IMG/VR virus record: IMGVR_UViG_3300030090_005562
Coordinates: 62,001 to 126,000 of that record
DNA: 64,000 nucleotides
Direction: 5' to 3' (one strand)
Source: a virus
The notes under the pieces were generated by a model. That model was not told where the DNA came from. It worked only from the letters and a program-made list of their open reading frames with translations, and did no database searches. Positions 6,701 to 37,419 of the stretch are shown piece after piece. The position numbers and the translations under genes were made by a program. Every line of letters begins with the position of its first letter. The first letter of the stretch is position 1.

Positions 6701-9700
6701 TCTTGCTGCTTGCGATAAAATGTCAGGCAGCTGAGACATTAGCTGTGCTGCGGCAAACCCTTCGGTTGCTATCTCCTCGGTTGGAGAGCCAATTTTAATG
6801 GCATCTTCAAGCTGAGATGTGCTAACACGTTCGCCCGCTGCAGCGCGTCCTATAACGCTTGTATCAACGGAGCCTATTCTGCCAGCAGCTGTACCCTCCA
6901 TACTGCTGTTAAAATTATCTATATTATTTGAGGCCGTACCAAAGAGTGAGGCAACGTCTTTGAAAGCTGAGGCGACATTTTGAGTTTCTCTGACAAGATT
7001 TTTCATCTCTTTTGCGGCTTCAATCTCTGCTTGCTTTGATTCTCTTAGTTTATTGTTTATATCTATTTGTTGTTGAAGCTCATCTTTAAGCACACGGTAT
7101 AAACTTGGGTCTACAACAGAAATGGACTCTAGTATTTTTTTGCCTGCTCCTCCCATTTTATTTTCAAAATCTTCAAAACTTGTAGATGACGCAGCAAGTT
7201 TATCAAGTAGACCTCTTACCTGAGGAAACTGTTTATTCAAATTATCTCTAAATTGCTCTCTATTTTCAGCGTCTGGAGTATTCAATAGTTCAGTCATTTT
7301 GGTAAATTGGGTTGCAAAAGCATTCATATTACTAAGTCTCATCCCATTCTTTTCAATACTTCTTAACGAATCAGACATCTCTTTTTGAATCTGAACAGAC
7401 CTACCTCTTTCTATAGCGGCTTCAACTTTAGCCATGCTAGGAGGTATAATCCCTCCAATTATTCCTCCAACTACACTCCCAACAACCACTCCCATCGGAC
7501 CTGCAATAGCACCAATCGCAGCTCCTGCCAGCATTCCCGTGCCAGCGTTGGCCATTCTAGAGCCCGATTCAAAATTTTCTCTAGCTGTCTGTTCATCTGC
7601 CATAGTTTTTACATTTTCAGCAGATTTTATAGCCGCATCTTTTACGCTGTTACCAAAAAGTAATAAAGCCGCTCCTGCAGCAACATAGCCCACAGCCAAA
7701 CTGTTCATTAGCACCCCAGCGGTCTTAAACTGAGTGACCATATTGGCAAGAGGACCACCCATCGATGTAAACAATGCTGGTATTCCAGAAAGCGCCGGAA
7801 CTAACATTGAAATTGTTCCGCCAAGCATAGCGATTGTGTTAAAGGTAGAAAGAAGGTCTTGGGTGGTTTCGCCAAGACCCCCAAAAGAGTCTGCCAACAT
7901 TTGAGCTGCCATCGGGACCATCATTAGGCCCATGCCAACGTTACCGGCTGTTGCCATACCGCCGCCTTGAAACTTCTGTACCCCTACAGGCCCACCGCTT
8001 GCAAAGCCCTGCACCCTTCCTTTATTAATTGCGTTAAGATTATTGACACCAATTCTTTGTGCTGATTTTTTGTTAACTACAAATTCACCAGGAGTAAGAA
8101 GTGCGGGTACAGTATCAGAGCCAGAGATTCCTCCTCCAGAGGCCCTGAATATAGTCGCCATTATTTCTTGAGTAGGCTTAGACATCTTGGCGGCCATTGA
8201 ATCAAATACTTTATCTAACTCAAAGCCAGCCTCTTCTATATTGAAGTTTTTAACTTTTTTAAGAAGCGCGCCAAGATTATCGGAAGTAAAATTACTTTTT
8301 GCATCAGTTGGTCTATTTTTAACTCTACTCATACTTGGAACATTAAAGTTCTCAAGGTTTACACCCAGGCCTTTTGGAAAGTCAAATGGGGCGTTGGCTG
8401 GGTCAGAGTCCTTCGGGCTATATGGAACATCAGTAACAGAAAGAACATTCTCAAATAAGTTGCCCATAACTTGGTCTATGTTGGCGCTTTTCATTTTAGC
8501 ATAAACAGCATTTTTATCAGTGTTAGCAACAACTTTTGAGCTAATCTGCCTTGCTGCATTAAAGACAGAGGACTCTACGCCTTCTAAGAGTATGCCCTCG
8601 ACCCTCTCAGAAACACCCTTTTTTAACGCTCCAGCCTGTATTCGAAACTCATTTTTTGAAGTATATTTGCCTACAACAGCCTTAGCTTCTGCTTCCGCAA
8701 CTGCAGCTCCAGCTAACAAGTTAGGGCCATGTGGGGCCCCCGCTTTTTTAGCCGCTGCTTTAATTTTCTCGATTTGTGAAGTGAATTTTTTATATCCGTC
8801 GCTTGACTTCAACACTTTTTGAAGAACAATTTGACTGTTATTGCCCTGCTTAAAGCCCGCAGAGGCGTTAGCGTGCGCCATAAAAGCTCCGCCATAAATA
8901 TCTTCATCAGCAAAACCTTTGGCTAATTGGCCGCCATCTTTTGTGACAACTTTCATTGCCAATCTGCCTCTTTCTATCAGCGCTGTTTTTTCTGGGTCAA
9001 ACGGCTTTAACGCTTTCGACCTACCCTGAGCAAACGCAGTTTGCCTAGCTGATGTTTGGGCAGCACGCAGTCCCGCACCAGGAGCTGCAACTATTGGTAA
9101 CGACATTCCTCCGTTGGCAAATCTCTGAACCGGAACAGTGCCTCCAGAATTCATTTGAGCAAGATTTTCTGCGCCATACTTTTTAACAGAGCTTTTTCTA
9201 ATAACAAACTCACCAGGAGTTAACATAGCAGGGACGGTGTCTCTATTGCCTGTTCCTGGAACAATTCCGCCAGTAGCAAATCTTCTGCCTCCGCCCATGG
9301 GCATTACAGAGAGCCTCATTTGCTTTGGGAGAGCCACCACTGCTGTTGTTAGCTTTTGTAAAGCGGATGTATTTGCTCCTAATGCAGTTACGAGCTTAGA
9401 CATGGCTTGGCTTTGAGCCTGTCTGCTAGCTCCACCCGCTGCGCCACCAAGATTTGCACCAGCCGCTCCAGCTCCTCCAGCTCCTCGAATGCCGCCTAAA
9501 AATCCAGCCCCAAATTGAAAAGCCATTTTGGCTCCTTGGAACGCTGCGAGGGCTCCTAGTAATGGCAGAACTGGCTTGATAGCATCTGCCACTTTAATGA
9601 ATGAAGAAGCCATTCCTAATATCACAGTCGTAATCGACTTAAAAGTTCCTGAACCAGCTAGGTCTCTGAATAAGCCAAGGAATTCTTCTCTAACTTTAGA

Positions 9701-10924
9701 TATTTGAACAGCCAGGGAGGCTTGAGCTGTTGCGGCATCCTTAGCAAGAGAGCCTTGACCCTGCTGAGCAACACGTAGGGCCTGTTGTGCTGTAGCAAAT
9801 TGCTGAATAAGAGGAATAACTTTAGACACCTGCCTGAACCCACCAAGCTCTTCAACAATTTTTGCAAATCTTGGGTCTGTAGAATCTAAGCTTTTAAGAG
9901 CTGCGCTTAATCTTTTTACAGCCTCAAAAGGACCGACAAAATTGCCTTCTAAATTTTGAAGCTCAATACCAGACTGTCTCAAAAATTCAATTGTTTTTGG
10001 TCTTTGAATTCTTGTAAAAATGGTTCTAAAGCCAGTCGCAATTGTTTCAGCGCTTTCACGGGTTGTTGCTCTAACGCTAGTGAACAAAGCAAGCAATTCC
10101 TCTAGAGAACCACCCGCAGCCTGAAATGCACCACCGGCTCTTCTAATTGCAAAAATCAAGTCTTGGGACTCAACAGCAAACTGACCTGCAAGAGCATTGA
10201 TGGAACCGAGCTTTTTGCCTAACTGGTCAGCGGTTACGCCAAACTGACGCATAATGGCAATTGCACCCTCTGCAGTATTTGCCATATCTTTAAAGGTAGG
10301 AGCTAAAGAACTTTGAGCCAGGGCTTTCATGGCTATAGTGACATCTCTAGCAGCGAGACCGGTTTGAGATAATGTTCTAGCTACATCAACAAGTTCGGAT
10401 GAAGAAACGCCAAGGCTTGAAGATAAATTTCCAATCTCTGAGGAAAGCCCTTTTAGATTAGACATTGTTTTTCCAGTGACTTGAGAAATCTTAACCATCT
10501 GTCTCTCAAAGTCAATGGCGGCCCTCGTACCCTCTTTTATAGCATTAGCCACCCCCATCATAATTCCGGCGCCAACACTAAACGCAGCAAATCTTTTAAC
10601 GGCTAATGCAGACTGCTTTCCAAAAGCGGCGGCGCCTGTAGCAGCAGAATTTAGTTGTGCGGCGGATTGTTTAGCCGCATTTCCAACTTTGCTTATAGAG
10701 GTGGATGCATTTTTTGCCGCTGCAGATGTTTGCTTAGAGGCCGCAGATATTTTATTAAGAGATGCAGCTATTGATTTTAGTTGAGCTGCGGTTTTTTTAT
10801 CAAGCCTTATGTTTACATTAGTGCTTACTTTACTAAGCTTGCTTTGAATTTGCTTAGTGACTTGATTTAAATTTTTTGGTCCACGAAGCTGAAGCTCAGC
10901 GACAATGTTAAATTTTGAAGACAT
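3800..10924 (-). CDS. tail tape measure protein (2374 aa)
   Basis: It sets tail length and fills the tail tube. Residues ~120-380 match the TP901-type tape measure core (FERQMVKISQVTGK, then LAQSSLAPTFKDMANTAEGA). Hydrophobic stretches near residues 110-130, 440-500 and 980-1160 and long Gln/Glu/Lys coiled coils near 1400-1900 are typical. Three copies of a PALLTPGEFV-type motif occur near residues 565, 945 and 2215, each followed by Asn/Gly-rich sequence. At ~0.15 nm per residue the tail would be about 350 nm. No lysozyme or peptidase motif was recognised. It follows the chaperone-position genes and precedes the fibre, the usual order. Confidence 0.95.
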   Translation of the reverse strand: MSSKFNIVAELQLRGPKNLNQVTKQIQSKLSKVSTNVNIRLDKKTAAQLKSIAASLNKISAASKQTSAAAKNASTSISKVGNAAKQSAAQLNSAATGAAAFGKQSALAVKRFAAFSVGAGIMMGVANAIKEGTRAAIDFERQMVKISQVTGKTMSNLKGLSSEIGNLSSSLGVSSSELVDVARTLSQTGLAARDVTIAMKALAQSSLAPTFKDMANTAEGAIAIMRQFGVTADQLGKKLGSINALAGQFAVESQDLIFAIRRAGGAFQAAGGSLEELLALFTSVRATTRESAETIATGFRTIFTRIQRPKTIEFLRQSGIELQNLEGNFVGPFEAVKRLSAALKSLDSTDPRFAKIVEELGGFRQVSKVIPLIQQFATAQQALRVAQQGQGSLAKDAATAQASLAVQISKVREEFLGLFRDLAGSGTFKSITTVILGMASSFIKVADAIKPVLPLLGALAAFQGAKMAFQFGAGFLGGIRGAGGAGAAGANLGGAAGGASRQAQSQAMSKLVTALGANTSALQKLTTAVVALPKQMRLSVMPMGGGRRFATGGIVPGTGNRDTVPAMLTPGEFVIRKSSVKKYGAENLAQMNSGGTVPVQRFANGGMSLPIVAAPGAGLRAAQTSARQTAFAQGRSKALKPFDPEKTALIERGRLAMKVVTKDGGQLAKGFADEDIYGGAFMAHANASAGFKQGNNSQIVLQKVLKSSDGYKKFTSQIEKIKAAAKKAGAPHGPNLLAGAAVAEAEAKAVVGKYTSKNEFRIQAGALKKGVSERVEGILLEGVESSVFNAARQISSKVVANTDKNAVYAKMKSANIDQVMGNLFENVLSVTDVPYSPKDSDPANAPFDFPKGLGVNLENFNVPSMSRVKNRPTDAKSNFTSDNLGALLKKVKNFNIEEAGFELDKVFDSMAAKMSKPTQEIMATIFRASGGGISGSDTVPALLTPGEFVVNKKSAQRIGVNNLNAINKGRVQGFASGGPVGVQKFQGGGMATAGNVGMGLMMVPMAAQMLADSFGGLGETTQDLLSTFNTIAMLGGTISMLVPALSGIPALFTSMGGPLANMVTQFKTAGVLMNSLAVGYVAAGAALLLFGNSVKDAAIKSAENVKTMADEQTARENFESGSRMANAGTGMLAGAAIGAIAGPMGVVVGSVVGGIIGGIIPPSMAKVEAAIERGRSVQIQKEMSDSLRSIEKNGMRLSNMNAFATQFTKMTELLNTPDAENREQFRDNLNKQFPQVRGLLDKLAASSTSFEDFENKMGGAGKKILESISVVDPSLYRVLKDELQQQIDINNKLRESKQAEIEAAKEMKNLVRETQNVASAFKDVASLFGTASNNIDNFNSSMEGTAAGRIGSVDTSVIGRAAAGERVSTSQLEDAIKIGSPTEEIATEGFAAAQLMSQLPDILSQAARESAGNPDKFQKTFTEVAKSMGFTGKAIEALSTRIGGLAGGRSESEGSIIDEIQEDSAAFAQKIQSDSAKALIAGIQDAAKQQQALFDGVLKINQQIFNTEKKVAQLRLKTIAKESQLLKLQNRNAGRGGALSRAQASAQFQRQQRVILGPENAGAAGDSDALRAGLLNSQQEVIDIQNKLANSSNLTAEETIALADELSKASDRSRRFQEALEHMSESGEELAAVQAELAIAEKKRNFLQDAAFMNVEQQQQLADDSMAGMQIAFNPESAAAQFDEFGNISAEFFQGGRDYLQGLQDMGINELQLADGTTANIDDSLDEFTVQRLGAQSGLAGDELEAFQDSIRAQLAERRRLQDEEAQLVQRQVRAMEALALSMEMQRAQAENERRKADEIKIREDKIKEKETEIEEKEKNVENLREEKADIDAELEDRETLGDSVAGDRGKLGKVAAGGGDLANIKAGRESAKELEKIQTKGRGALGKDALKETSSDISQSAVSTPGGMDKGTITARGMKSIIAKARNVFMETFSPHVDTEGLRIFMDSFTSAVEIGDRLNVVKSAFEKGVKAYINYKEKQDADVQNEAEVSTQNLKTGPGALTDDEIDQLSIDPGSAAAAAGRQDDREKNRDPDAARPTTGQLQTQSGNLDTKIDEGQSEIDTDRAGLGTDRANLTTTRGKPASDFADPFDPGIENQEQQSSLGLGQSQMVCPENAKYFDSVNKKCFEKRFFDPTEQRDDPPSFDPKHYYTRELYPQNPDGIKNSERTLNYSSFDDEPYYSSSGGPFGAGSGPMAGSLSKGTDTRLAVLTPGEFVVNRAATAKNLSLLHAINNGNTINASSGGRIGYFQNGGNGGSAGFGAFTSAVQLFAQAVSSISMSGQGGDSGSTDFAALASALTNFPTSTGVQGLITALNRFSDTFGSNAIEVKMESNGVDVNLNGVEAFANLAESGLMQKVGQVVTARFQDLFQGQDA

Positions 10925-16644: not shown

Positions 16645-18171
16645 CTAACCGCCCTTCACTCTTCTAAGCATTTGCGCAAAATATTTATCCTGAGCTAAGC
16701 CCCAAGGCACAGCCTCTCCCTCTCTTTCGCAAACCCATTTTCTATATGCAGACAAATCTTTGTTTAGCAATATTCTGTCACATTTTTCAATTTTTGGCAA
16801 ATCATGCATTCTGCCAATAATCATCACAGCAGTATCTGGATTTTCTACAGCTCCTGTGATGGACCAATCTCTTGGAGTCCAATAAACTCTCAGCCTAACA
16901 TCTTCCTTAATCGCACGATTAGTCCTGCCTTCTCCTCCGCACCAAGGACAAATCGTATGATTTTCAAAAGGAACTGGCCCGCCTGTCTTGTATATATTTG
17001 ACGACCTTTTTTGTCTTGGGCTATAAATGCAGTTTGGGCAAACTGAATTTTTTGTTATTGGGTAAATCAATTGACAGTTTTGGCCTGTGTTTCCAGATAT
17101 TAATGAATCAACTATATGTTCATGGCTAGATATTACCTCGTTGGGAATTGTAAAAGGCTTTGGGACACCATAAACTATTTCTGTTCTAATTAGCTTTTCT
17201 AAGGCCCCTATATCATAAGCTGTGCCTTGCGGCCTAGCGACTCCAAGCATGTCAACCGTAACAGACGATACCGTTTTTCCAGCATCTAAAGCTAAAGATG
17301 TCTTTGATAAGGCAAAGCTATTGTTTGGTGCGTCTTTAAAAACATTAGAGGCTGTGGCATTAATTTGGTGATTCAAACCGCTAAAATCATCAGCTGTTCC
17401 ATCACTACTGATGTTATTGTTAAATTGTTTTGAGCCAGTGTCAAATGTAATTTGATTAAAAGCGTATGTTATCGATTCATTGCTAGAGGTTACTGCGCCG
17501 ATGATAACATTATTTTCAACTGTTATATTTAAGGTGCAAGAAGCGGTATTTGCAAATCTTATACCGTAGTTATTAACGCTACCAGGATTTGCTACATAAA
17601 TTGAATTATTATATATAAACATATTTGTTACTCCGCCAGAACCGTCCGTAGCGTAAGCATAAATCCCAGCCGGTGTAGTGCCAGCCGTACCGTCTATAAT
17701 AATGATATTATTAGTAACATTGTTGGAGCTAGTAACTCCAGTGGAGCTTTGACCAATAAAAATGCCGTATTGAAAAGTACCATGAATAATACAATTATCA
17801 ACCCTACAATCTCTCGAAGTTCCAGAAGTTAAAAAAGAAATTGCCGTGTTTGAATTTGTAGCCCCTGTTACTCTGAGTCCGTCTATTTGCGTATAAGGAA
17901 CCCCAATCGTCATTGGCGTGCTTGCTTCCACGTATGCGCCAGCAGTTACATCTGCCTCATGCCCGTGGCCGTCTGCCGCATAAATTTTTGGAAAATTATC
18001 TGAATCCGGCGTTGAAGACCATCCTGAAAGAGTTACGGCTCCTAAATTGCCTCCAGTGTAACACTCCGCATGTTGGTCGGCGGTGGATTCTCCATCAGCA
18101 AAGTCTTCCCACAACGCCAATGTTGTAAAATCTCCATCACCAGCAGGTTTAATTGTTTTTATTGTAGGCAT
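16645..18171 (-). CDS. beta-helix module fused to zinc-ribbon neck-like domain (508 aa)
   Basis: This protein has two parts. Residues 1 to ~330 are a beta-helix-type module with the same GDFTT opening and YDIGALE ending as the 975-residue fibre. Residues ~335-508 contain a zinc-ribbon-like pattern, CPNC then CPWCGGEG about 40 residues later, followed by a compact alpha/beta end (YRKWVCEREGEAVPWGL). The C-terminal part resembles small stand-alone connector proteins of other phages, an impression from memory. The protein could therefore anchor an outward-facing adhesin at the neck, which is inference. It lies 7 bp upstream of the gp10-like gene. Confidence 0.65.
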   Translation of the reverse strand: MPTIKTIKPAGDGDFTTLALWEDFADGESTADQHAECYTGGNLGAVTLSGWSSTPDSDNFPKIYAADGHGHEADVTAGAYVEASTPMTIGVPYTQIDGLRVTGATNSNTAISFLTSGTSRDCRVDNCIIHGTFQYGIFIGQSSTGVTSSNNVTNNIIIIDGTAGTTPAGIYAYATDGSGGVTNMFIYNNSIYVANPGSVNNYGIRFANTASCTLNITVENNVIIGAVTSSNESITYAFNQITFDTGSKQFNNNISSDGTADDFSGLNHQINATASNVFKDAPNNSFALSKTSLALDAGKTVSSVTVDMLGVARPQGTAYDIGALEKLIRTEIVYGVPKPFTIPNEVISSHEHIVDSLISGNTGQNCQLIYPITKNSVCPNCIYSPRQKRSSNIYKTGGPVPFENHTICPWCGGEGRTNRAIKEDVRLRVYWTPRDWSITGAVENPDTAVMIIGRMHDLPKIEKCDRILLNKDLSAYRKWVCEREGEAVPWGLAQDKYFAQMLRRVKGG

Positions 18172-18174
18172 AGA

Positions 18175-19194
18175 TTAACCATTTCCATATCCGTTAGCGT
18201 CATTATGACTAACTCTTTTTGATTTTACGAACCTATCATTTAATTCATCAACTTGAACCTGTGCGTCAATGCTGTCTGTATTGTCTCTTTTCTTGAAATT
18301 AATACCTCCGCTATGAACTGTAATTCCAGCCTGTGTTCTAAGATTAGCTGTAATAATTTCATGAAGAACATCGTTGCCTGTAAGCGCAGCTTCGTCTGAG
18401 GCTTCTTCTTCGCCGCCACCGCCTCCTCCTCCTCCAGAAGAGGTAAACGGAATAGTATCAGTTCCCATGTAGGTATTGGGATAAAACATTCCAGCGCTAG
18501 TGCTATACATGGTTGGAGTTGCTGCGAACGTAGGACTACTAGTTTCATCTAAGTCATAAGTGTTCATAACGTCTCTGTACGCACCCGCTGCTGTAGCAGT
18601 GCTTCCAACATAAGGGCCTCCCATAGGAAAATAAGCTCGCATATTTCCAGGACGAACAAAAAGAGGGGAGGCTCCGTTGTAAAGACTTGTTATTTCTCCG
18701 GCGGTAAGAGCTGCGTCCCAAGCCGCCCACTCAGCTATCTCTCCATCAAAATAATATGCGGTGCCAGGGTTACCAGCATAGGCCAGACCAATTTTAAAAT
18801 CAAGCCCGGCTGTGCTGTGGTCGCTAGTTTGATTGCTAGTGTGTGAAACCGCTGAAGCGTTATCTACAAAAAGCTCTCTTGAACCGTATTGATGTATCGC
18901 AAGAAGATGATACCAAGTAGTGCTATTATCAGCTATAACAGCGCTAGATGATGCTACATAGCTATTTTTAAAGCGCAACCTAATCTTACCGTTAGAGAGC
19001 AAATATAAGCCTAATCTTCCAGCTCCAACAGAGCCGTCATACTGCTCCCAAACGCCTCCGTTCTGTCTGCCATGAGGCTTAATCCAACAAGAGGTGGTGA
19101 ACGCATAGTTAGTATTGCTAAACCCGCTAGAGTTTAATATACTTATATTGTCTTTGCCGATACAATCGTCGGTGCCATCAAATATAATGCTCAT
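18175..19194 (-). CDS. LamG-like lectin domain linked by poly-Gly to a connector-type module (339 aa)
   Basis: Residues 1 to ~215 look like a LamG/concanavalin jelly roll (AFTTSCWIKPHG, WYHLLAIHQYGSRELFVDN, FDGEIAEWAAW). A low-complexity spacer of eight Gly then EEE follows near residue 258. The last ~65 residues (LTGNDVLHEIITANLRTQAG, then GGINF and ELNDRFV) are clearly paralogous to the free-standing 68-residue protein at 20844-21050. The poly-Gly link therefore joins a sugar-binding domain to a small structural anchor. The ribosome site is GAGGAG. Confidence 0.72.
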   Translation of the reverse strand: MSIIFDGTDDCIGKDNISILNSSGFSNTNYAFTTSCWIKPHGRQNGGVWEQYDGSVGAGRLGLYLLSNGKIRLRFKNSYVASSSAVIADNSTTWYHLLAIHQYGSRELFVDNASAVSHTSNQTSDHSTAGLDFKIGLAYAGNPGTAYYFDGEIAEWAAWDAALTAGEITSLYNGASPLFVRPGNMRAYFPMGGPYVGSTATAAGAYRDVMNTYDLDETSSPTFAATPTMYSTSAGMFYPNTYMGTDTIPFTSSGGGGGGGGEEEASDEAALTGNDVLHEIITANLRTQAGITVHSGGINFKKRDNTDSIDAQVQVDELNDRFVKSKRVSHNDANGYGNG

Positions 19195-19703
19195 TACGTC
19201 TCCTCGTATAAAGATACGGATGCAACGTAAACGTCTCCGCTAACTCCATCTTCACTAACGTCTCTCACAATTCCTATTCTAACTATATCTCCTGCGGCTA
19301 CACTATCTTTTGCTGATAGTGTATATGTTAAAATGTCTGGGTGTCCAGCCGTTCCTGGAACAGTTTTTGTTGATGCGGCCGCAGATAAATCAAAACTGGC
19401 TGCAGCCTCCATATCCAAAGAGTCTCCATCAGTAACCGCTTCTACTGCAACAAACATTGCAAGGTCGCCAGATGTGGCGCTTGCCGTATAATAACAAACA
19501 TCAGCCTTAAGAGTTCCGCTTCCGGTGTATTCAGCGGGCATTACAAACATGCCAGTTACAGCGGCTTCGTCAGCAGAATCATCAAAAGCCAGACCAACTC
19601 TTGAAAAGGGAGTGGTGCCATGATTAACATAAGTTGGGCCTGTAGTGGTATGTGCTGGGCCAAACGCCGTAGATGGGAAATTTAATGTAAAGTTTCTAGC
19701 CAT
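19194..19703 (-). CDS. beta-sandwich virion decoration-like protein (169 aa)
   Basis: Not recognised by family. It is Ala/Ser/Thr/Asp-rich with alternating strands (VCYYTASATSGDLAMFVAV, DIVRIGIVRD), consistent with a small jelly-roll surface protein. Its ATG overlaps the previous stop codon region and GGGGA precedes it. Placement among connector and lectin genes suggests a virion or fibre-associated role. Confidence 0.6.
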   Translation of the reverse strand: MARNFTLNFPSTAFGPAHTTTGPTYVNHGTTPFSRVGLAFDDSADEAAVTGMFVMPAEYTGSGTLKADVCYYTASATSGDLAMFVAVEAVTDGDSLDMEAAASFDLSAAASTKTVPGTAGHPDILTYTLSAKDSVAAGDIVRIGIVRDVSEDGVSGDVYVASVSLYEET

Positions 19704-20212
19704 TATTCAATCCCCTTTGCTGTTCTAATTACTACTTGTGGGTCAGCGGCTAGCCACGCATCAAGATTTAGCTCCATCGCAGAAACCTCATCTTCGGTAG
19801 TAGCAGCATCAACATTGTCTTGAGCAGCGTAAAGTAAGTCTTGTCCTTGGTCAATCCAAGCGGCGAGCTGAGAGACATAAGTCACTCTTGCCGTATTTCC
19901 GGCTGCGACTGCCAATTGAAGGACGAGCAGAAGGCTGAGCTTCTCGTCATCCGTATACTTGCTTCTAAGTGCTTCACCAAGCTCTTCTTTGAATTCGTCT
20001 TTTTTATCAGACTTAACCTGAGATAGCCACTCAGCGTCCGCAGAAGCTATCTGTGAGGCTGTTTTTAAAGTAAGGCTGTCTCCAGACACCTTCCAGTGTC
20101 GTTTAGGAGCGTCGGGAATATCAGGGTTTATAAGCCATTCGCTAGGGTCATATTCTGGAGTATTTACACTCTGAATAACCTGAAGCGTTGTTTTATTTAC
20201 TACTGTTGCCAT
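19703..20212 (-). CDS. hypothetical structural protein (169 aa)
   Basis: The N-terminus (PDIPDAPKRHWKVSGDSLT) resembles short proteins found near phage tail fibres that carry a Pro-x-x-x-W-K motif. The remainder is helical and acidic. GGAG precedes the ATG. It abuts both neighbours, so it is part of the same transcript. No firm function. Confidence 0.6.
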   Translation of the reverse strand: MATVVNKTTLQVIQSVNTPEYDPSEWLINPDIPDAPKRHWKVSGDSLTLKTASQIASADAEWLSQVKSDKKDEFKEELGEALRSKYTDDEKLSLLLVLQLAVAAGNTARVTYVSQLAAWIDQGQDLLYAAQDNVDAATTEDEVSAMELNLDAWLAADPQVVIRTAKGIE

Positions 20213-20869
20213 TTATGTACTCCAACTATCTAATGGTTCAACTTTTCTTGAAAGAAATTCTTGTATGTCTGTAGTTTGGTCTCTTCTAAGTGCTGTAGCT
20301 GCATGCAAAATAGGATTAGGGGTAAGTATATCCCTGTGTTCCTTTATTCCTCTCTCATGTGGCTCTCTTTTGTCTATACCCCTCTCTTCAATATAAATAA
20401 CTAAATCATCTGCGGCTAGAAAATTAGCCTCTATTTCTGGGTCAAAAACATCGTCTGTTTCACTTTCGGGAAGAGCGTCAAAATCAAAATGAAGAACGCT
20501 TCTATTTGTCATTACCGTTTGTGTCATAGGCTGTCCGTCTGGTGCAGTCATTTGAACTCCATTGTCATCTTCTATGGGCTCTGTTACAATCTCACAAAAA
20601 GGAAAGTCTACGGTTGGATTTGGTTCTCCCCATTCTTTTTTCTTATTCAATATTGCTAAGGCAAGTGCTGCGGACTGAAGCTCTAAAACAGATGCGTTAT
20701 TTCCTGGCCAAGTCACGACTTGATGCACCTTTAGCTCTTGACTCCCCCATTTACCTCCAGCCAACCTGCAAGTAATTACGTCGCCTCTTCTTTTGACGCC
20801 CTTTTCTCCTTGACGCCTAACAGAAACCATAAGCTCTATTTCATTAGACACCGTACCTGTCTCCGTCAT
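20213..20869 (-). CDS. connector-region protein, paralogue of 21053-21595 (218 aa)
   Basis: The N-terminal ~50 residues (RRGDVITCRLAG, then WGSQELKVHQVVTW) align well with residues 14-47 of the 180-residue protein two genes upstream. This indicates an old tandem duplication with divergent C-termini. The rest is acidic with a DDVFDPEIEANFLAADD stretch. Function unknown. It is translated in an overlap with the 68-residue gene. Confidence 0.6.
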   Translation of the reverse strand: MTETGTVSNEIELMVSVRRQGEKGVKRRGDVITCRLAGGKWGSQELKVHQVVTWPGNNASVLELQSAALALAILNKKKEWGEPNPTVDFPFCEIVTEPIEDDNGVQMTAPDGQPMTQTVMTNRSVLHFDFDALPESETDDVFDPEIEANFLAADDLVIYIEERGIDKREPHERGIKEHRDILTPNPILHAATALRRDQTTDIQEFLSRKVEPLDSWST

Positions 20870-21050
20870 TTTCTATAAATCTATTGTCAAGTTCGTCTAT
20901 TGCGTTTTGCGATTTAGGAATTTGTTCTCCTCGTCTTTCATCAAAATTTATTCCGCCATTGCTCATTTTCATACCAGCCTGTATTCGTCTGTTGGCTGAA
21001 ATGGTCTCTGTAACCACATCGCTGCCACTCAATGCGTTTTCACCTGCCAT
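20844..21050 (-). CDS. small anchor-type protein (68 aa)
   Basis: The stand-alone version of the module fused to the LamG protein at 18175-19194: shared LSGSDVVTETISANRR, GGINF and ELDNRFI. GAGGG precedes the ATG. The presence of both free and lectin-fused forms suggests a small virion subunit that can display a partner domain, which is inference. Confidence 0.65.
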   Translation of the reverse strand: MAGENALSGSDVVTETISANRRIQAGMKMSNGGINFDERRGEQIPKSQNAIDELDNRFIENDGDRYGV

Positions 21051-21052
21051 TT

Positions 21053-21595
21053 TTATACCCTCACTAACTTGCCGTCTATTATTTCAGTTTTTATTCCATA
21101 TCTTGATAACTGCTCGCTTAAAGTATCTAAATAATCTAAATATTTTTGATTGTTGTGAATTGGAGTTTCATCTCCAACAGGTGGTCCTGGCTTAGTTTTT
21201 AAACATTCAGTTTTAGCGAATTCTTTGTTGCTCTCAAATTCTTGTGAAACTTCTTCATCGGTTTTTTCTTTTGCTTCACCTAGCTCAATATTAAAATATT
21301 TTTTTGAACGAGTTTTGGTAACGTCGCCCTCATAAATTTTTATGCCATTATTATCAAAAATAGTGCAGTTTTCAACCTCTTTGTAAGGCGTCACAACCGT
21401 AGGGGGAGATTTTGTTTTCCCAAGTTGCTGCCTCATTGACTCTTCTAAAGATTCGTCATCCCAATCTAAAACCATGTGGACCCTCTGTTCCATAGCCCCC
21501 CAATCTGCAAACTCTTTTAATTTAACACATATAACATCTCCGCCTCTTTTGTCCGCACATGCAGAATTTTTCGTTCTAATCAGAGCTTCTAACAT
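21053..21595 (-). CDS. connector-region protein (180 aa)
   Basis: Paralogous at its N-terminus to the 218-residue protein (KRGGDVICVKLKEFADWG, then VHMVLDW). The middle is charged and helical, and the C-terminus ends DTLSEQLSRYGIKTEIIDGK. No recognised domain. It lies 1 bp from the preceding gene in the run between the adaptor and the tail genes, so a virion or assembly role is inferred. Confidence 0.6.
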   Translation of the reverse strand: MLEALIRTKNSACADKRGGDVICVKLKEFADWGAMEQRVHMVLDWDDESLEESMRQQLGKTKSPPTVVTPYKEVENCTIFDNNGIKIYEGDVTKTRSKKYFNIELGEAKEKTDEEVSQEFESNKEFAKTECLKTKPGPPVGDETPIHNNQKYLDYLDTLSEQLSRYGIKTEIIDGKLVRV

Positions 21596-22093
21596 TTATT
21601 CATACCAAACTGTTACCCAGCCTCTATTGTAGCTGGTTGAATCAAAATCAGCAGAATCGAAGCTTCCGCCAGTTTTTCTAATTAAAACAACTTTTTTGTT
21701 AGTAATGCCAGAAACAGCCACATCAACAGCAGTCATGTGCGTGCCGCTGTTTGAGTGATTATCTCCAAAGTATACTGTGTCCGCATCATTTCTAATTGTG
21801 AATGCGGTATTTCTTGTGCCCTTCCAGGTGTCTGAATATTCAAGCCCATGATTTACTTTAACAAATCCCGTGCTATCCATATTCCAGTCGCCAATCTCGA
21901 CAGTATTTCTTCTGAGCCCATAGTCATCAAATCTGGCTTGATAGTCTCCAGAAGCTCTAACCGCGAAATCAAGTTCAGTAATAGTCGATGTAACATTAAC
22001 ATCGATTCTTTGTGTGTCTCCAAGTTTATTTACAGAAACAACACCGTCATTGTTATTGTATCCGTCGCTAGACTTTATTTTATGTATTGGCAT
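21596..22093 (-). CDS. beta-rich virion protein (165 aa)
   Basis: Not recognised. It contains many Asn/Asp/Thr turns and strands (DTVYFGDNHSNSGTHMTAV, KKVVLIRKTGG) and ends RGWVTVWYE, typical of small head or neck surface proteins. GGAG is 10 nt before the ATG. It follows the putative adaptor protein directly. Confidence 0.6.
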   Translation of the reverse strand: MPIHKIKSSDGYNNNDGVVSVNKLGDTQRIDVNVTSTITELDFAVRASGDYQARFDDYGLRRNTVEIGDWNMDSTGFVKVNHGLEYSDTWKGTRNTAFTIRNDADTVYFGDNHSNSGTHMTAVDVAVSGITNKKVVLIRKTGGSFDSADFDSTSYNRGWVTVWYE

Positions 22094-22108: not shown

Positions 22109-22630
22109 CTAATGTCTATTTCTTGTATTTTGGTAGTCTGTTCTTCCAGCTCCACCATAAATTGCATTTCTATGTGGTCCGATAATCGCCTCTCCAACAT
22201 TGCTATTACCAAGTCTGTATTCTAATTCTGCCTGTTCGTAGTTTGCACACGCCATCTGCATCATTTCTTTTTTTGCGGCAACCATACCTCTGGGGTCAAC
22301 TGTTGATGGCCCATCTCTTACAACTATGGCATGGTTTGTAGATGACCTGTACTCACCCTTAGCTAAAAGGCAGGCGGCTTTTAAAACAACAAGATTTACA
22401 AAAGATTTATCATTTGTTGGCGTAGGAGATATTCCAGAATTAGGTATGTCAACAGTATAATCTGCCGGAAAATCTACAACGCCGAGTGTTAGGTGTGCGG
22501 ATGAGACTAAAAGGCTGCAGAGCCTTTCGTCGGTAAATTCTCTGGTTGTTTCATCGGCGTCATTTATAACATACCTCAAAAGGGTAGTCATTTCTGTCTT
22601 CCAGCCATCGGTGCTTTTACCGTAAGCCAT
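22109..22630 (-). CDS. head-tail adaptor (connector) protein (173 aa)
   Basis: Length, position after the capsid gene and a largely helical pattern fit gp6/gp15-type adaptors that bind under the portal. Motifs seen: WKTEMTTLLRYVINDADE, an LVVLKAACLLAKGEYRSS helix, and a conserved-looking VDPRGMVAAKKEMMQMAC helix. AGGAG precedes the ATG, and a late-promoter-like motif lies 43 nt upstream after the capsid terminator. Thus the adaptor and the following genes appear to form a new transcription unit. Confidence 0.68.
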   Translation of the reverse strand: MAYGKSTDGWKTEMTTLLRYVINDADETTREFTDERLCSLLVSSAHLTLGVVDFPADYTVDIPNSGISPTPTNDKSFVNLVVLKAACLLAKGEYRSSTNHAIVVRDGPSTVDPRGMVAAKKEMMQMACANYEQAELEYRLGNSNVGEAIIGPHRNAIYGGAGRTDYQNTRNRH

Positions 22631-22747: not shown

Positions 22748-23761
22748 TTACAGCGAGCCAAGGATTACTCTACGGTTGTCGAGAACGGCAAAGCCATGCT
22801 CAGCAAAACCATAGAATCCAGCTCTACGCTGACGATGGAGGTTCTCATCCTCGTAAACCTGAACGTTTTCACGAACCGGACGCACAAACGAATCGTTTGA
22901 GCTGAGGTCCAATCCAACAAGAAGCTCAACATCAGAAGCCTGAAGACTTCCGCTGAGTTCATTCTTGAAGAAGTTCTGGTACTCTTGACCAACACCAAGC
23001 TCATCAATGTCTTGAATGTTGACAGAGAAAATACGATTGATGGTCGCTGCGCCATCTTCAGCCGTGTAAATTTCACGACGAGTGATGTCGTCAACTTGGT
23101 CTACGCCCCAGTTACGAATATCTTCGATAGCTTCGGGCGAAACGTACAAGTCTGTCAATTTGCCACGATTAATGCTGCTGGAGTTTCCACCACCATTACG
23201 TCTCATGACAGTCTTCAACAGAGACACGATTCTCTTCGTAAACTGACCAGCTGCTGCGTCAGCGTCGTAAACCAAAATATTTCGGTCAACGCCAGCGGCA
23301 AGCAACGTGTGCCAAGCATCGTCATTAGTCTTCTTGACGAAGCTAGACTGTAAAACCTGAAGCGCTCTACTGACGATATCCCAACGAGCGTCACGAGCGT
23401 AACGAAGCGTCCAGTCAATACTGGAAGCAATCTCGAAAGTAGGAATCATCACATAGTCACCTTCCACATAACGCTCAGGAACACGACCATGATTAGGAAC
23501 GCTGTAAGCAACGAAATCTTTTTCCGTGCCAGGAGCAAGAAAATCCAAAGGAAATTCTGGCGTGGCGCCGGGTTCAAGATTGATAGTCTCAAAGATATTA
23601 CCCGTAATATCTCCGCTCATCACGCCCTGACGCAGAGGCTGTTCAAGCGCAACAGCTAGCTGATGCGTAGCCTCAAGCGAATCGGCTCGATTTGCAGAGC
23701 CGCTCTTCTTCAAAAGTGCGGTCATCTCTGGCGTAGGAGCGCTAATAATATTTCTACTCAT
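22748..23761 (-). CDS. major capsid protein (337 aa)
   Basis: This subunit forms the head shell. The start at 23761 has AGGAG 8 nt upstream, and a longer frame to 23797 would overlap the previous gene and lacks this site. The protein has a helical N-arm (TPEMTALLKKSGSANRADS), a long spine-helix-like region (RDARWDIVSRALQVLQSSF) and a C-terminal beta part ending FAVLDNRRVILGSL. The length and order after protease/scaffold and decoration genes match HK97-fold capsid genes. No Ig-like insertion is seen. A terminator follows. Confidence 0.88.
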   Translation of the reverse strand: MSRNIISAPTPEMTALLKKSGSANRADSLEATHQLAVALEQPLRQGVMSGDITGNIFETINLEPGATPEFPLDFLAPGTEKDFVAYSVPNHGRVPERYVEGDYVMIPTFEIASSIDWTLRYARDARWDIVSRALQVLQSSFVKKTNDDAWHTLLAAGVDRNILVYDADAAAGQFTKRIVSLLKTVMRRNGGGNSSSINRGKLTDLYVSPEAIEDIRNWGVDQVDDITRREIYTAEDGAATINRIFSVNIQDIDELGVGQEYQNFFKNELSGSLQASDVELLVGLDLSSNDSFVRPVRENVQVYEDENLHRQRRAGFYGFAEHGFAVLDNRRVILGSL

Positions 23762-23771
23762 TTTAGTTCTC

Positions 23772-24287
23772 CTATCTATTTGGATAATAATTAGCATCTG
23801 CTTGCGGTAGGTTTACATAAACCTTTGCATAACCGTCTTCATCTTTCAAACTTCCGAACTCACCAATGACTTTACCACCGGTGCGATTCTGACGATTCAA
23901 CAACGGCGAGGAATTAGTATTAGTAATAAGTCCGCTAGGACCAACAAACGCTAAATCGCCTGCTGCGATAGTCACGCCTGGGTCAATCTGGTTTGTAGTA
24001 ACCCAACCCTTACGAAGCAGAGTTACCTTGCCGCCTTTTTGCATCTCATTCTTGTGGAAATTGATGTGCTGACGAGTCTGGTCGATGTTGACCATATCGT
24101 TGAGCAGGATTCCAACCGGAGTAAGACCCGACTGGGCGGCTGCATATGTAACCAACGCGGCTGATTGGTCAAGAGCAGCACCAGAACCTGCAGTGCTAAG
24201 AGTAACGCAACCGCCACGTTCAGCAACTTCATTCAAGAAGAAGTCTGTGGTGGTTTCGAACTCGTATCGGTCGCCTTTAAGTGCCAT
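23772..24287 (-). CDS. head decoration / stabilising protein (171 aa)
   Basis: Small beta-rich protein (GGCVTLSTAGSGAALDQSA, then GDLAFVGPSGLITNTNSS) located between scaffold and capsid genes, the usual place of decoration or capsid-cementing proteins. AAAGGAG lies before the ATG. It ends 10 bp before the capsid ATG, so the two are probably co-expressed at high level. Role by position and composition. Confidence 0.65.
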   Translation of the reverse strand: MALKGDRYEFETTTDFFLNEVAERGGCVTLSTAGSGAALDQSAALVTYAAAQSGLTPVGILLNDMVNIDQTRQHINFHKNEMQKGGKVTLLRKGWVTTNQIDPGVTIAAGDLAFVGPSGLITNTNSSPLLNRQNRTGGKVIGEFGSLKDEDGYAKVYVNLPQADANYYPNR

Positions 24288-28278: not shown

Positions 28279-30324
28279 TTATTTTCTTCTTACCCCAATC
28301 CCGTATATCCCAGACATTTTTTTAATTAAATGCTCTGGTCCTGTATAAAGTTGCCCCTTTTTTGCGCCTCTGTCTTGATTCGCATACCCTCCGACAAACT
28401 TGTGTTCTTGGCCAGAAAGCTGGTTATGTAAAGTATGCGCAACCTCATTTGCCATGAGCAGTGACGAGTATCTATCTTTTCGGAGCCTTCCCTTTTTCCC
28501 TCCGGCCTCTACAGTCTGAGGGGTGTCCCATTTATCTCTACCGGTTGAGGTTTGAGTGTGTTCTATAGTCGCCAATTCGTCTTTCAAAGATTCTATTTCC
28601 ATAACGCAATCTTCTAGAGTATCATAATGCCTGTTAGATAATTTGTCTTGGATTATTGCTTCTGAAAGCAGAACGGTATCAAATTTAGGGAATAGTAAAC
28701 AGTTCGTTTCAAAGTCTTTTCTTAAATTGTGGTTTGCTTTAAATGTAAACTCAGATTTAGCAAATTGAATCATGTGCAATATGTGCAAACCAGCTTCGCC
28801 ATCTGTAGGTTTATTTGAAGATTCCCAGTAAAAACCGTCTTTTTCATCATGCTTTACATATGGCCAAAGAGGCTGTTCTCCGTCTTTCAGAAGATTCTTG
28901 TCGTGCAAAGCTTCCATGATTGCTATTCCGCCGCCCTGAGCATCAATGGCTATGTTATTTGTTGGAAATACTTTGGTTAAATCTAGTATTTTTCGAGCGC
29001 AGTAATTATAAAAACTTTCAAGCGTAGAGTCTTTTTTAGTTTTTATTCTTTCTCTCATCACCTGTCGGCTGCAAGTCCAGACGTAAACTATTCTTCTGTG
29101 TGATTCATTTTGTTCTAGGATAACTATAGAAAAATTATCTGTTTCTGATGCGGGGTCAACACCATATATGTATTTTTTATTTGGATTGCCCGTAAGCATG
29201 GCGTCAAATTGAACCTCATCTCCTGACGGTAAAGCTACCACTTCGTTTGTTACACATCTTTCTATTAGGCTTCTCTTAAAGAAACCCTCCGAGTCTTTTG
29301 CAAAACATGCCTCATATTCCATTTCATACCTTGATGAATGTAGCATAGCTTTGGCTTGTGCTAATTGAGATTTATCCATAAACCCATCAGGCAATAATCC
29401 TTCGGGTATTCTCATAACTGAGTATTGTTTCCAGTCAAAGCCATCTGGTATTTGACCTTTAAATACCTTTTCTTCTAAATATTTCTCGTCTCCCCTGCTT
29501 TTGACTATTTCCCTTTGTCTTGTGAAATATTCATAAAAATGATTAAAAGCATAATATGCAGTTCCAGCTATAATAGTTTGGTTTCCAAAGCCCATTTCAT
29601 CTTCAATTTCTTCGGCCTGAGAATACATACCTAATTCTTTAAGCTTTTGTATTTGAGCGTATTCCTTTACTCTGTCTGCTGGATTTGCTGACACCGCACC
29701 AAAACCCTTAATAACAACTTCAAAAATTTCCTGCGGAATAGATGCAAATTCGTCAGCTATAATATAGTTTGCGCGAAGACCACGAATCTTAGAGCCATCA
29801 CCAAGAGGTATTGCAATTATTTCGCTTTTTCCAACGTAAAATGTACATCGGTCTATATCTCTCTTTGGGCCCTGGCCTTTGCCCGCACCAACCATATTTG
29901 CAAATACAGGAGAATTTTTATAAAATGTCTCCATGTATTCAAACAAAAGTTTTGACTGCCTGAAAGCCGCACCAATTACGATAATTTTACAGCCTTGCAT
30001 AAAAAACGCTCTAAGTAAAGAGTACAGCGCAAGAATCCAAGTTTTACCTGCTCCGCGAGTGGCTATTAACATTGGGAATTTTCTATTCCATAGCTCTTCA
30101 AGTATACACAATTGAAATGGTAAAAGGTCAACATTAAGTAGATATTTGCATGTGAACCAAAAGTTTTCTGGCTTAGACATGAAGTCTAAGTATTCCATGA
30201 TAGGGTTATCATAGTCATGCTCTGGATTAATGAGTTTATTTTTAACATTGACGTTTTGAACATCGCCAAGGTTTAAATGCGCATGTCTTAAAAGATTTTC
30301 TATGTGTTCTTTACTTGTGTCCAT
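28279..30324 (-). CDS. terL: terminase large subunit (681 aa)
   Basis: ATP-driven DNA packaging motor and nuclease. Motifs: Walker A IATRGAGKTW near residue 90, Walker B YIIADEF near 190, and nuclease acids in YGVDPASETDN, AIDAQGGG and DTLEDCVMEIE. The start at 30324 (MDTSKEHIENLL) is preferred; an in-frame start at 30390 adds 22 hydrophobic-basic residues and would overlap the nuclease gene by 80 bp. It follows the ERCC4-type nuclease and precedes the portal gene. Confidence 0.95.
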   Translation of the reverse strand: MDTSKEHIENLLRHAHLNLGDVQNVNVKNKLINPEHDYDNPIMEYLDFMSKPENFWFTCKYLLNVDLLPFQLCILEELWNRKFPMLIATRGAGKTWILALYSLLRAFFMQGCKIIVIGAAFRQSKLLFEYMETFYKNSPVFANMVGAGKGQGPKRDIDRCTFYVGKSEIIAIPLGDGSKIRGLRANYIIADEFASIPQEIFEVVIKGFGAVSANPADRVKEYAQIQKLKELGMYSQAEEIEDEMGFGNQTIIAGTAYYAFNHFYEYFTRQREIVKSRGDEKYLEEKVFKGQIPDGFDWKQYSVMRIPEGLLPDGFMDKSQLAQAKAMLHSSRYEMEYEACFAKDSEGFFKRSLIERCVTNEVVALPSGDEVQFDAMLTGNPNKKYIYGVDPASETDNFSIVILEQNESHRRIVYVWTCSRQVMRERIKTKKDSTLESFYNYCARKILDLTKVFPTNNIAIDAQGGGIAIMEALHDKNLLKDGEQPLWPYVKHDEKDGFYWESSNKPTDGEAGLHILHMIQFAKSEFTFKANHNLRKDFETNCLLFPKFDTVLLSEAIIQDKLSNRHYDTLEDCVMEIESLKDELATIEHTQTSTGRDKWDTPQTVEAGGKKGRLRKDRYSSLLMANEVAHTLHNQLSGQEHKFVGGYANQDRGAKKGQLYTGPEHLIKKMSGIYGIGVRRK

Positions 30325-30799
30325 ATTTTTGTTGAGACTCCATAAACCTCTTAAATATACTAGAACAAACTTCTTTAGCGTACTTGCCACAAAAGATAAA
30401 TGGAACGTCGTATTTCTTTTGAAATTCTAGTATTCTCTTTAGGAAGAATGGTCCTCTCACTTTCATGTATTTTCTCTTATAGGCGGGTATTTTACTTCCT
30501 TTAGGAAATTCAACCACATCTTTCATTTCAAACTCTAACAATACATATCTCCATGGAAACTCTATCATTCTCTCAAGCTCTCTCTCAAACCTTGGTTGTG
30601 TTATGTTTGTTGCTAGCTCTGATACATTTCCTTTTCTCTCTATACATATATGATTTTCGTATCCGTATAAAGTATAATCCCCAGTCTTTATGGTTTGCTC
30701 CTCTGTTCCGGCGCAATATCCAGACTGTGCAAATTCCCAGCCGTCTTTTTCTCTGGTATCCCTATAAACTAAATAAGGGTCGTATTTTTCTTTGGACAT
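30311..30799 (-). CDS. ERCC4-type nuclease (162 aa)
   Basis: Probable structure-specific DNA endonuclease. The pattern VYRDTREKDGW, TGDYTLYGYE, ICIERKG and RFERELERM matches the ERCC4 (XPF/Mus81) nuclease core, including the conserved ERK triad and the GDY motif. It overlaps the end of the GMD gene by 31 bp and the start of terL by 14 bp. Closeness to the terminase suggests a role in resolving branched DNA before or during packaging, which is inference. Confidence 0.82.
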   Translation of the reverse strand: MSKEKYDPYLVYRDTREKDGWEFAQSGYCAGTEEQTIKTGDYTLYGYENHICIERKGNVSELATNITQPRFERELERMIEFPWRYVLLEFEMKDVVEFPKGSKIPAYKRKYMKVRGPFFLKRILEFQKKYDVPFIFCGKYAKEVCSSIFKRFMESQQKYGHK

Positions 30800-31836
30800 G
30801 ATTCGTTTATGTCATGCTCTACCATTCTTTTAACCATTTCATTGAAGGGAGTTTCTACAGTCCATCCAATCTCATTTTTTGCCTTATTGGCGTCTCCATG
30901 TAAAAACTCTACCTCCGCAGGTCTATAAAATTTGGGGTCAACAACTACTAAGTTTTCCCATTCTTTTATGCCTATAAAGTCAAAAGCTATTCTAACAAAA
31001 TCCCTAACGGTTCTGCTAGTTCCGGTAGCTATAACATAATCCTCTGCTTGTTCTTGTTGTAACATCATCCACATCGCCTTAACGTAATCAGGCGCATAGC
31101 CCCAATCTCTGGCCGCATCCAAATTTCCTAATCGCAGTTTTGGAAAGCTTTCCTCTGGGTTCATTACAGAAAGTATGTTGTCTGGGTCAGAGACTGCATC
31201 GAATGGCTTGTTCTCGCTAGCCATCCAGTTTCTAAATTCAGCTACCCATTTCGTAATCTTTCTGCTCACAAACTTCTCTCCTCTTCTCTCGCTCTCATGA
31301 TTGAATAAAATACCACTGCAAGCATACATTCCATAAGCCTCTCTGTAGATTCTTACTTTGTGGTGTGAAGCAAGTTTTGCTATGGCGTATGGAGACTGAG
31401 GCTCAAATGGCGTGCTTTCTCTTTGATAGCCATCTGGGTCAACAGAGCTTCCAAACATTTCAGATGTGCTTGCCTGATAAAATTTAGCCTTAAAAGAGTG
31501 TCTTCTGACTGACTCAAGTATATTTAGTGGGCCTTCAGCGTCAACCCTCCATGTATGTAGAGGCTCATTGAACGATGTCGCAACATGAGACTGAGCCGCA
31601 AGATTGTAAACTTCGTCAGGCTGAAAGTCATTGATAATCGAAGAAACACTGATAAAATCAGTCACATCGCCTTCGACTAGGCTAAAACCATCATTTTGTT
31701 CTAGGTGTCGTAATCTTCCTGTGTTGTCTATGCTTGCTCTGCGAATAACGCCTAAAACTTTGTATCCTTTTTCTAAAAGAAGTTCGGATAGGTAAGAGCC
31801 GTCTTGTCCTGTAACCCCAAATATAATAGCTTTCAT
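30769..31836 (-). CDS. gmd: GDP-mannose 4,6-dehydratase (355 aa)
   Basis: Converts GDP-D-mannose to GDP-4-keto-6-deoxymannose, precursor of fucose, rhamnose or perosamine sugars. Visible: NAD(P)-binding GVTGQDGSYL at the N-terminus, NLAAQSHVATSF, catalytic STSEMFG and the YAIAK motif (YxxxK), then NHESERRGEKFVSRK, all family hallmarks. Full length. AAGGA precedes the ATG. It is oddly placed inside the packaging operon, between the HTH gene and the nuclease. The other glycan genes (36.8-39.3 kb) are on the other strand. Confidence 0.95.
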   Translation of the reverse strand: MKAIIFGVTGQDGSYLSELLLEKGYKVLGVIRRASIDNTGRLRHLEQNDGFSLVEGDVTDFISVSSIINDFQPDEVYNLAAQSHVATSFNEPLHTWRVDAEGPLNILESVRRHSFKAKFYQASTSEMFGSSVDPDGYQRESTPFEPQSPYAIAKLASHHKVRIYREAYGMYACSGILFNHESERRGEKFVSRKITKWVAEFRNWMASENKPFDAVSDPDNILSVMNPEESFPKLRLGNLDAARDWGYAPDYVKAMWMMLQQEQAEDYVIATGTSRTVRDFVRIAFDFIGIKEWENLVVVDPKFYRPAEVEFLHGDANKAKNEIGWTVETPFNEMVKRMVEHDINESCPKKNTTLI

Positions 31837-36790: not shown

Positions 36791-37419
36791 TTATAGCGAG
36801 ATACAATGAAGATGTACATTGGGCAAAGTATATTAATTTTGCTGATGTAATTATATACAATAAGGGAGAAGACGATATTCCTGGTGCAATAAGACTCCCT
36901 AATGTTGGGCGCGAGTCTGGCACATATCTTAGGTTTATCATAGATAACTATGACAATATAAGTTCTTCAACGCTTTATTTTTTCCTTCAAGCAAACCCTT
37001 TTGAACATGGACTTGATTTGGAAAAAATTGAGAACACATACACGCCATGTGAGTTGGGTAAAGTGAAGTGGTTGGAGTCTACAAGCGGAGTATCTAACAA
37101 ATATTTCCCGGCAGGATTGCCTGTAAAAGAATTTTGTGAAATGATTTTTGTTGAAAGCCCTTTTGAATCAGACACGCATAATATATGTGGTGGGGCTTTG
37201 TTTTGTTGTTATGGATTAAATATAAAAAAGAGATGCAAGCAGTTCTATGAATTCCTTAGCATTTATGCTCAAAGCCTAAATCCGTTAGAAGGGCATATAA
37301 TGGAAAGAATATGGAAATATATAATGTTTACTGATGTAAAAGACAAAATAACTGAATACTCAAAAAAAAGAAAAGTGTTTGCCAGAAATGCAAGCTGGAA
37401 TGGAATGAAAATTGATTGA
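36775..37419 (+). CDS. DUF3431-like glycan-associated protein (214 aa)
   Basis: The N-terminus IIIARYNEDVHWAKYINF, then IYNKG, LPNVGRESGTYLRFII and NPFEHG match the DUF3431 pattern, a family related to glycosyltransferases. It overlaps the UDP-galactopyranose mutase gene by 8 bp and forms a three-gene glycan cassette with the next two genes. Substrate unknown. Confidence 0.75.
   Translation: MDKKIIIARYNEDVHWAKYINFADVIIYNKGEDDIPGAIRLPNVGRESGTYLRFIIDNYDNISSSTLYFFLQANPFEHGLDLEKIENTYTPCELGKVKWLESTSGVSNKYFPAGLPVKEFCEMIFVESPFESDTHNICGGALFCCYGLNIKKRCKQFYEFLSIYAQSLNPLEGHIMERIWKYIMFTDVKDKITEYSKKRKVFARNASWNGMKID

What the first reader, a model, noticed from the sequence alone, without database searches (positions are those of the whole stretch)
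18175..21050. Lectin domain tethered by poly-Gly to a duplicated small connector-type module
The last ~65 residues of the LamG protein are paralogous to the separate 68-residue protein. Eight consecutive Gly plus EEE join the two domains. The phage therefore seems to make both a bare anchor and a lectin-carrying anchor, a natural display system near the head-tail junction.
Basis: partly seen in the sequence, partly recalled or inferred. Interest (0 to 1): 0.65.

Follow-up and report, generated by a model that had tools for sequence, protein, structure and literature searches.

The report
Swappable lectin on phage docking module
An uncultivated phage carries a sugar-binding-type domain tied by a glycine string to a 60-residue module that it also makes on its own, and relatives hang other domains on the same or similar modules, so this looks like a small docking part for interchangeable surface domains near the head-tail joint.

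Summary
The 339-aa ORF 18175-19194(-) has a Laminin_G_3 domain, eight Gly plus EEE, and a C-terminal ~60-aa module (M2) that is 43% identical to the separate 68-aa protein 20844-21050(-) (M1). The similarity is far above chance. Both copies and their order recur in four distinct close relatives. M1s and M2s form separate groups, so the duplication is older than these phages, and both are under purifying selection. M2 (92-95% identical in three of four comparisons) is better conserved than the lectin (72-79%). The poly-Gly is not conserved: two relatives lack it. In a sixth phage the module carries a beta-helix-like domain instead of LamG. Across the wider lineage (MCP relatives on more than 500 contigs, no isolate found) the interval between the putative head-tail adaptor and stopper genes is a cargo hotspot. 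There, similar 59-86-aa modules occur bare or fused to LamG, collagen-like, repeat or other domains. Their kinship to M is suggestive, not proven. I read M as an accessory docking module with interchangeable payloads, probably at the neck. 'Connector' in the sense of a channel component is not supported. Virion location, docking partner and glycan binding are untested. New variant of a known kind (compare neck passage structures).

The parts
18691..19122 (-). Laminin_G_3 / ConA-like domain (residues 25-168), the payload
   Evidence: Pfam PF13385 1.2e-15, 58.3 bits, cut-off 27.6; residues 1-175 are 72-79% identical in relatives
18436..18690 (-). region between LamG and linker (residues 169-253), function unknown
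   Evidence: conserved in 5 phages
18403..18435 (-). GGGGGGGGEEE linker (residues 254-264)
   Evidence: sequence; 8-9 Gly in three phages, absent in L003/L004
18214..18393 (-). M2: C-terminal copy of the small module (residues 268-327)
   Evidence: 43% identical to M1, E 8e-16; dN/dS 0.04-0.19 where measurable
20844..21050 (-). M1: bare 68-aa copy of the module
21923..22093 (-). N-terminal ~57 aa of the 165-aa protein, member of the wider U module family (family Z)
   Evidence: hhalign to bare modules of distant loci: P 7.6e-6 to family D, 1.4e-4 to family X, 0/60 column shuffles
21596..21922 (-). C-terminal ~100-aa domain carried by that module
   Evidence: conserved in relatives; no Pfam/PHROG match above noise
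16645..17157 (-). putative head-tail stopper with tetra-cysteine motif (CPNC...CPWC), C-terminal part of the 508-aa protein
   Evidence: Cys invariant in 45 homologues; AF2 pLDDT 84.6; best PDB fold match is the phage 812 stopper, E 0.044, with other phage neck proteins behind it
17158..18171 (-). beta-helix-like N-terminal part fused to the putative stopper
   Evidence: 32% identity to the beta-helix-like protein of L024 that carries module M; absent from the stopper of distant relatives
22109..22630 (-). putative head-tail adaptor, other border of the cargo interval
   Evidence: gene order; 41-row profile, conserved across the lineage; no PDB sequence match
21053..21595 (-). A1, gene before M1; paralogue of A2
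20213..20869 (-). A2, gene after M1

Best explanation
M is a ~60-aa accessory docking module. One copy is made bare (M1). The other ends a protein whose LamG domain is carried outward on a flexible linker (M2). The module binds a site on the assembled particle, most likely the outside of the neck between adaptor and stopper, and presents an interchangeable payload. LamG here (a beta-helix-like domain in a relative) would bind glycans of the host surface and aid reversible capture. Bare copies would fill further sites, or sites left free by loaded copies. Shown: duplication, conservation, payload difference and gene position. Inferred: docking, neck site, presence in virions, glycan binding, and the role of the bare copy.
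For: Paralogy and reciprocal clades. Purifying selection on M1 (dN/dS 0.05-0.09) and M2 (0.04-0.19), with the module more conserved than the lectin in three of four comparisons. The same module is fused by a Ser/Gly/Thr stretch to a beta-helix-like protein in L024. Genes lie between putative adaptor and stopper in every relative that has both ends. The stopper assignment rests on invariant tetra-Cys, an AF2 model and the fold search, and the phage 812 stopper binds Zn through four Cys (PMC12886913). The module is not needed for a neck: adaptor and stopper genes adjoin in 10 of 51 loci. The wider U/Y modules show the same build: bare in many loci, or N-terminal to a Pro/Thr linker plus repeat domain (L178), LamG (L102), collagen-like repeats (L029), the rest of a 795-aa protein (L039) or a ~95-aa domain (L168); bare and loaded forms occur together in L029, L039 and L102.
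Against: No virion proteomics, no isolate, no docking partner. Structure prediction of the LamG-M2 protein failed (pLDDT 29), and M alone was not modelled. The kinship of M to the wider U/Y family is weak: hhalign P 0.0037, score 18.5, while unrelated families reach 17.3. The linker is absent in two relatives. Bare M1 is absent in L024, so it is not essential to the fused form. Gene position does not fix the place in the particle.
Confidence: 0.5

Rival explanations
1. M docks on the capsid shell: the LamG protein is a head fibre or decoration protein like T4 Hoc or phi29 gp8.5, and M1 a small cement protein.
For: Genes follow the major capsid protein closely; several decoration proteins bind carbohydrates and are dispensable (PMC7602432).
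Against: The interval is bounded by putative adaptor and stopper, and the 171-aa protein before the MCP is the more likely head decoration; no Ig-like domain was found.
Confidence: 0.22
2. M is an oligomerisation or assembly domain of a fibre that sits elsewhere, such as the tail; bare M1 is an assembly partner of LamG-M2.
For: The C-terminal part (DELDNRF) could be a short helix; neighbouring 169-aa genes could be fibre components (inference).
Against: Fibre and tail-tip genes are expected around the tape measure gene at 3800-10924; M1 is about the size of the fused copy and is kept by selection as a separate gene; some loci have bare modules of the U kind only.
Confidence: 0.18
3. The module is not a virion part: it acts in the infected cell and the LamG fusion is incidental.
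For: No virion data; no homologue of known function.
Against: Embedded in the head-neck gene block in all relatives; payloads are typical surface domains.
Confidence: 0.07
4. M1 is merely a decaying relic of a duplication.
For: Absent in L024, where A1 and A2 adjoin.
Against: dN/dS 0.05-0.09 and full length in five phages.
Confidence: 0.03

Closest known systems
Neck passage structure (NPS) of lactococcal phages TP901-1, Tuc2009, phiLC3
   Same: Adhesion appendage at the head-tail junction with conserved ends and a swapped carbohydrate-binding domain (PMC9692632); closely related phages exchange a receptor-binding and a pectin-lyase-like domain on one N-terminus (PMC10684548).
   Different: NPS is a ~700-aa protein with a BppU-like anchor and coiled coil; here the anchor is a ~60-aa module with no sequence match, at the C-terminus, and also made as a separate bare protein.
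Stopper decoration protein and neck whiskers of phage 812
   Same: Accessory proteins on the adaptor-stopper junction that seem to hold whiskers (PMC12886913).
   Different: No sequence relation shown; the stopper decoration protein has two domains; the whisker gene is not identified.
T4 Hoc, T5 pb10, phi29 head fibre gp8.5
   Same: Particle-surface proteins that add little to capsid stability and help attachment (PMC7602432).
   Different: Dock on the capsid; Ig-like or coiled-coil parts; no bare anchor paralogue that I know of.
Laminin_G_3 domain proteins (PF13385), PHROG 8510 virion structural protein
   Same: The payload belongs to this superfamily.
   Different: The module M is not part of that family; ligand unknown.

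Membership tests
Laminin_G_3 (PF13385) | Profile score above the curated cut-off | tested here: met
   58.3 bits against 27.6, residues 25-168
Laminin_G_3 (PF13385) | Binds a carbohydrate | not testable with these tools
   needs glycan array
Neck passage structure proteins | Conserved terminus with exchanged payload between close relatives | tested here: met
   LamG in window/L003/L004/L005/L007, beta-helix-like in L024, same module
Neck passage structure proteins | BppU-like N-terminal anchor | tested here: not met
   No such Pfam or PHROG match in the LamG protein; it may work like an NPS but is not filed as one
Neck passage structure proteins | Located on the collar of the virion | not testable with these tools
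   no isolate
Tetra-cysteine stopper (for 16645-18171 C-terminal part) | Two cysteine pairs forming a Zn loop | tested here: met
   C37, C40, C67 and C70 invariant in 45 rows; pattern C-x-x-C...C-x-x-C, not the C-P-C...C-x-x-C of Herelleviridae; Zn binding itself not tested
Tetra-cysteine stopper (for 16645-18171 C-terminal part) | Stopper fold | tested here: inconclusive
   Best of 350,542 PDB chains is the phage 812 stopper, but E 0.044, TM 0.29; several other phage neck chains in the top 20
Tetra-cysteine stopper (for 16645-18171 C-terminal part) | Gene between adaptor and tail terminator | tested here: inconclusive
   Order is conserved, but adaptor and terminator are themselves named by position only
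U module family (bare modules near the stopper gene in distant loci) | Profile-profile similarity of M to the family above unrelated controls | tested here: inconclusive
   score 18.5, P 0.0037, 0/100 column shuffles, but unrelated families reach 17.3; the aligned part is collinear over 51 columns
Hoc-type capsid decoration | Ig-like domains | tested here: not met
   no Ig-like Pfam match

The most novel reading that the evidence does not exclude
A lineage of uncultivated large phages uses a family of ~60-aa plug-in docking modules, made both bare and fused at either end to interchangeable surface domains, on one site of the neck. Competition between bare and loaded modules would set how many lectins each particle carries.
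Probability: 0.22. Interest if true: 0.68.

Novelty: new variant of a known kind. Interest (0 to 1): 0.5.

Why it matters
If right, it is a natural plug-and-play display system: a module small enough to use as a tag, with bare copies as a control and payloads already exchanged by evolution. It would help explain why the interval between adaptor and stopper genes is so variable in this lineage, and it gives a concrete target for docking tests in a phage group that has no isolate in the collection searched.

Tried and rejected
tblastn of LamG protein and M1 against 50,697 phage records found nothing. PHROGs, Pfam and PDB searches with M or M-like profiles found nothing usable. Searching the putative stopper and adaptor profiles against PDB sequences gave only chance matches; the fold search was needed. 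A scan of genome contigs with the MCP, to learn the host, gave one short weak match in a Spirochaetaceae bin (25 residues) and says nothing on the host. Treating M as a proven member of the U family was rejected because real unrelated families score nearly as high. E-values of the U/Y profile against its own training rows were not used as evidence. The idea of M as a channel component was rejected because many loci lack any module there. LamG of L102 is not a recent copy of the window's LamG (no BLAST match).

Full report
Observation. ORF 18175-19194 on the minus strand (339 aa) and ORF 20844-21050 on the minus strand (68 aa) are present as described. The last part of the first (residues 268-337) matches the second with 30/70 identities, E 8e-16 in a single comparison. 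The local score is 134 against a mean of 26, sd 4.9 and maximum of 48 in 2000 shuffles. GGGGGGGGEEE occupies residues 254-264. The N-terminal part is a Laminin_G_3 domain. The window lies in a virus record of 148,761 bases, which holds only these two copies of the module and one Laminin_G_3 match.

Conservation. Four distinct relatives in viral contigs (L003, L004, L005/L006, L007) carry both copies in the same gene order. The bare copies form one group and the fused copies another (support 89/95 and 97/96), so the duplication is older than the split of these phages. Both are under purifying selection: dN/dS is 0.05-0.09 for M1 and 0.04-0.19 for M2 where synonymous change is not saturated. In three of four comparisons M2 is the best conserved part of the fused protein (92-95% against 72-74% for LamG); in L007 the two are about equal (80% and 79%). 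The poly-Gly is 8-9 residues long in three phages and missing in L003 and L004, so the tether itself is not what selection keeps.

Payload exchange. L024 (MCP 86% identical) lacks the bare copy and the LamG gene. There the module ends a 453-aa protein whose residues 10-364 are 32% identical to the beta-helix-like N-terminal part of the window's 508-aa protein, with a Ser/Gly/Thr stretch before the module. Thus one module carries two unrelated payloads within a group of close relatives. 'Beta-helix-like' rests on the look of the sequence; no Pfam family matched.

Where the genes lie. The order is terminase, portal, a 557-aa protein (protease/scaffold by position), a 171-aa protein, MCP, a 173-aa protein, the interval with M1 and LamG-M2, the 508-aa protein, a 211-aa and a 336-aa protein, a 412-aa protein and, further on, the tape measure gene. 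The C-terminal 167 residues of the 508-aa protein are a separate small protein in distant relatives. The cysteines of its C-x-x-C...C-x-x-C pattern are invariant in 45 rows. Its AF2 model is good (pLDDT 84.6). The best fold match among 350,542 PDB chains is the stopper of phage 812, at a weak E of 0.044 and with poor superposition, with several phage head-tail connector and neck chains among the next ones. The phage 812 stopper also has a four-cysteine Zn loop, and its adaptor-stopper junction bears decoration proteins that seem to hold whiskers (PMC12886913). That paper reports the motif only in Herelleviridae, and the spacing here differs. I take it as a probable stopper. The 173-aa protein is named adaptor by position only.

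The wider lineage. An MCP search gave 576 confirmed relatives, of which 80 were fetched, and a stopper search gave 115, of which 80 were fetched. The only phage-collection matches of the MCP were two records of Bacillus phage G at 22% identity. Among 51 loci with distinct stopper sequences and both borders visible (some are near-copies in other respects), 20 have a module of the M or U kind between adaptor and stopper, and 10 have no gene between them at all. The bare U modules are 59-86-aa proteins, often directly before the stopper gene. Families D, X and Z (the last being the N-terminus of the window's own 21596-22093 protein) are related by profile comparison (P 1.5e-7, 7.6e-6, 1.4e-4; 0/60 shuffles), and the N-termini of variable proteins (family Y) join them (P 1.3e-4, 0/100 shuffles). 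Fused forms include a Pro/Thr-rich linker and repeats in L178, a LamG domain in L102 (6.4e-15), collagen-like repeats in L029, the rest of a 795-aa protein in L039 and a ~95-aa domain in L168. L029, L039 and L102 have a bare and a loaded module side by side. The module M itself resembles U/Y over 51 collinear columns with P 0.0037 and 0/100 shuffles, but windows of unrelated phage families reach 17.3 against 18.5. So the parallel in architecture is good, while common descent of M and U is only suggestive. Counts of U modules depend on a profile trained on some of the same loci.

Mechanism. The best reading is an accessory docking module with interchangeable payloads, probably on the outside of the neck, the payload aiding reversible capture of the host by its surface glycans. 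Steps shown: duplication, conservation, exchange, gene position. Steps inferred: docking, site, presence in virions, glycan binding, and the role of the bare copy, which may fill the sites that loaded copies leave free. The fact that the 508-aa protein is itself a probable stopper with a surface-type domain at its N-terminus fits a neck that carries several displayed domains.

Comparison. The closest known kind is the neck passage structure of lactococcal phages, with exchanged carbohydrate-binding domains (PMC9692632, PMC10684548). The present case differs in the very small module, its C-terminal place, and the separate bare copy. It may work like such a structure; it is not a member by sequence.

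Noticed in passing
16645-18171: The probable stopper is fused behind a ~340-aa beta-helix-like part in the window's clade, while distant relatives have the stopper alone; the same kind of N-terminal part begins the 975-aa protein at 870-3797.
   Followed up: partly
20213-20869 and 21053-21595: A1 and A2 are paralogues (24-28% identity, shared KRxGDVI...WG..E.xVH motif). The order A1-M1-A2-...-M2 suggests that a two-gene unit was duplicated.
   Followed up: partly
30769-31836, 37412-38488, 38473-39321, 56992-57444: Sugar-nucleotide and transfer genes: GDP-mannose 4,6-dehydratase within the packaging block, UDP-galactopyranose mutase, glycosyltransferase 2, and a sulfotransferase domain.
   Followed up: partly
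30311-30799: An ERCC4-type nuclease gene next to the terminase; similar ORFs stand at the same place in distant relatives.
   Followed up: no
22748-23797: The MCP belongs to a lineage with more than 500 contigs in IMG/VR, yet the only match in the phage collection searched is a remote one to Bacillus phage G.
   Followed up: partly
L029:11085-15428: A 1447-aa ORF lies between MCP and adaptor; other loci have large variable ORFs in the same place.
   Followed up: no
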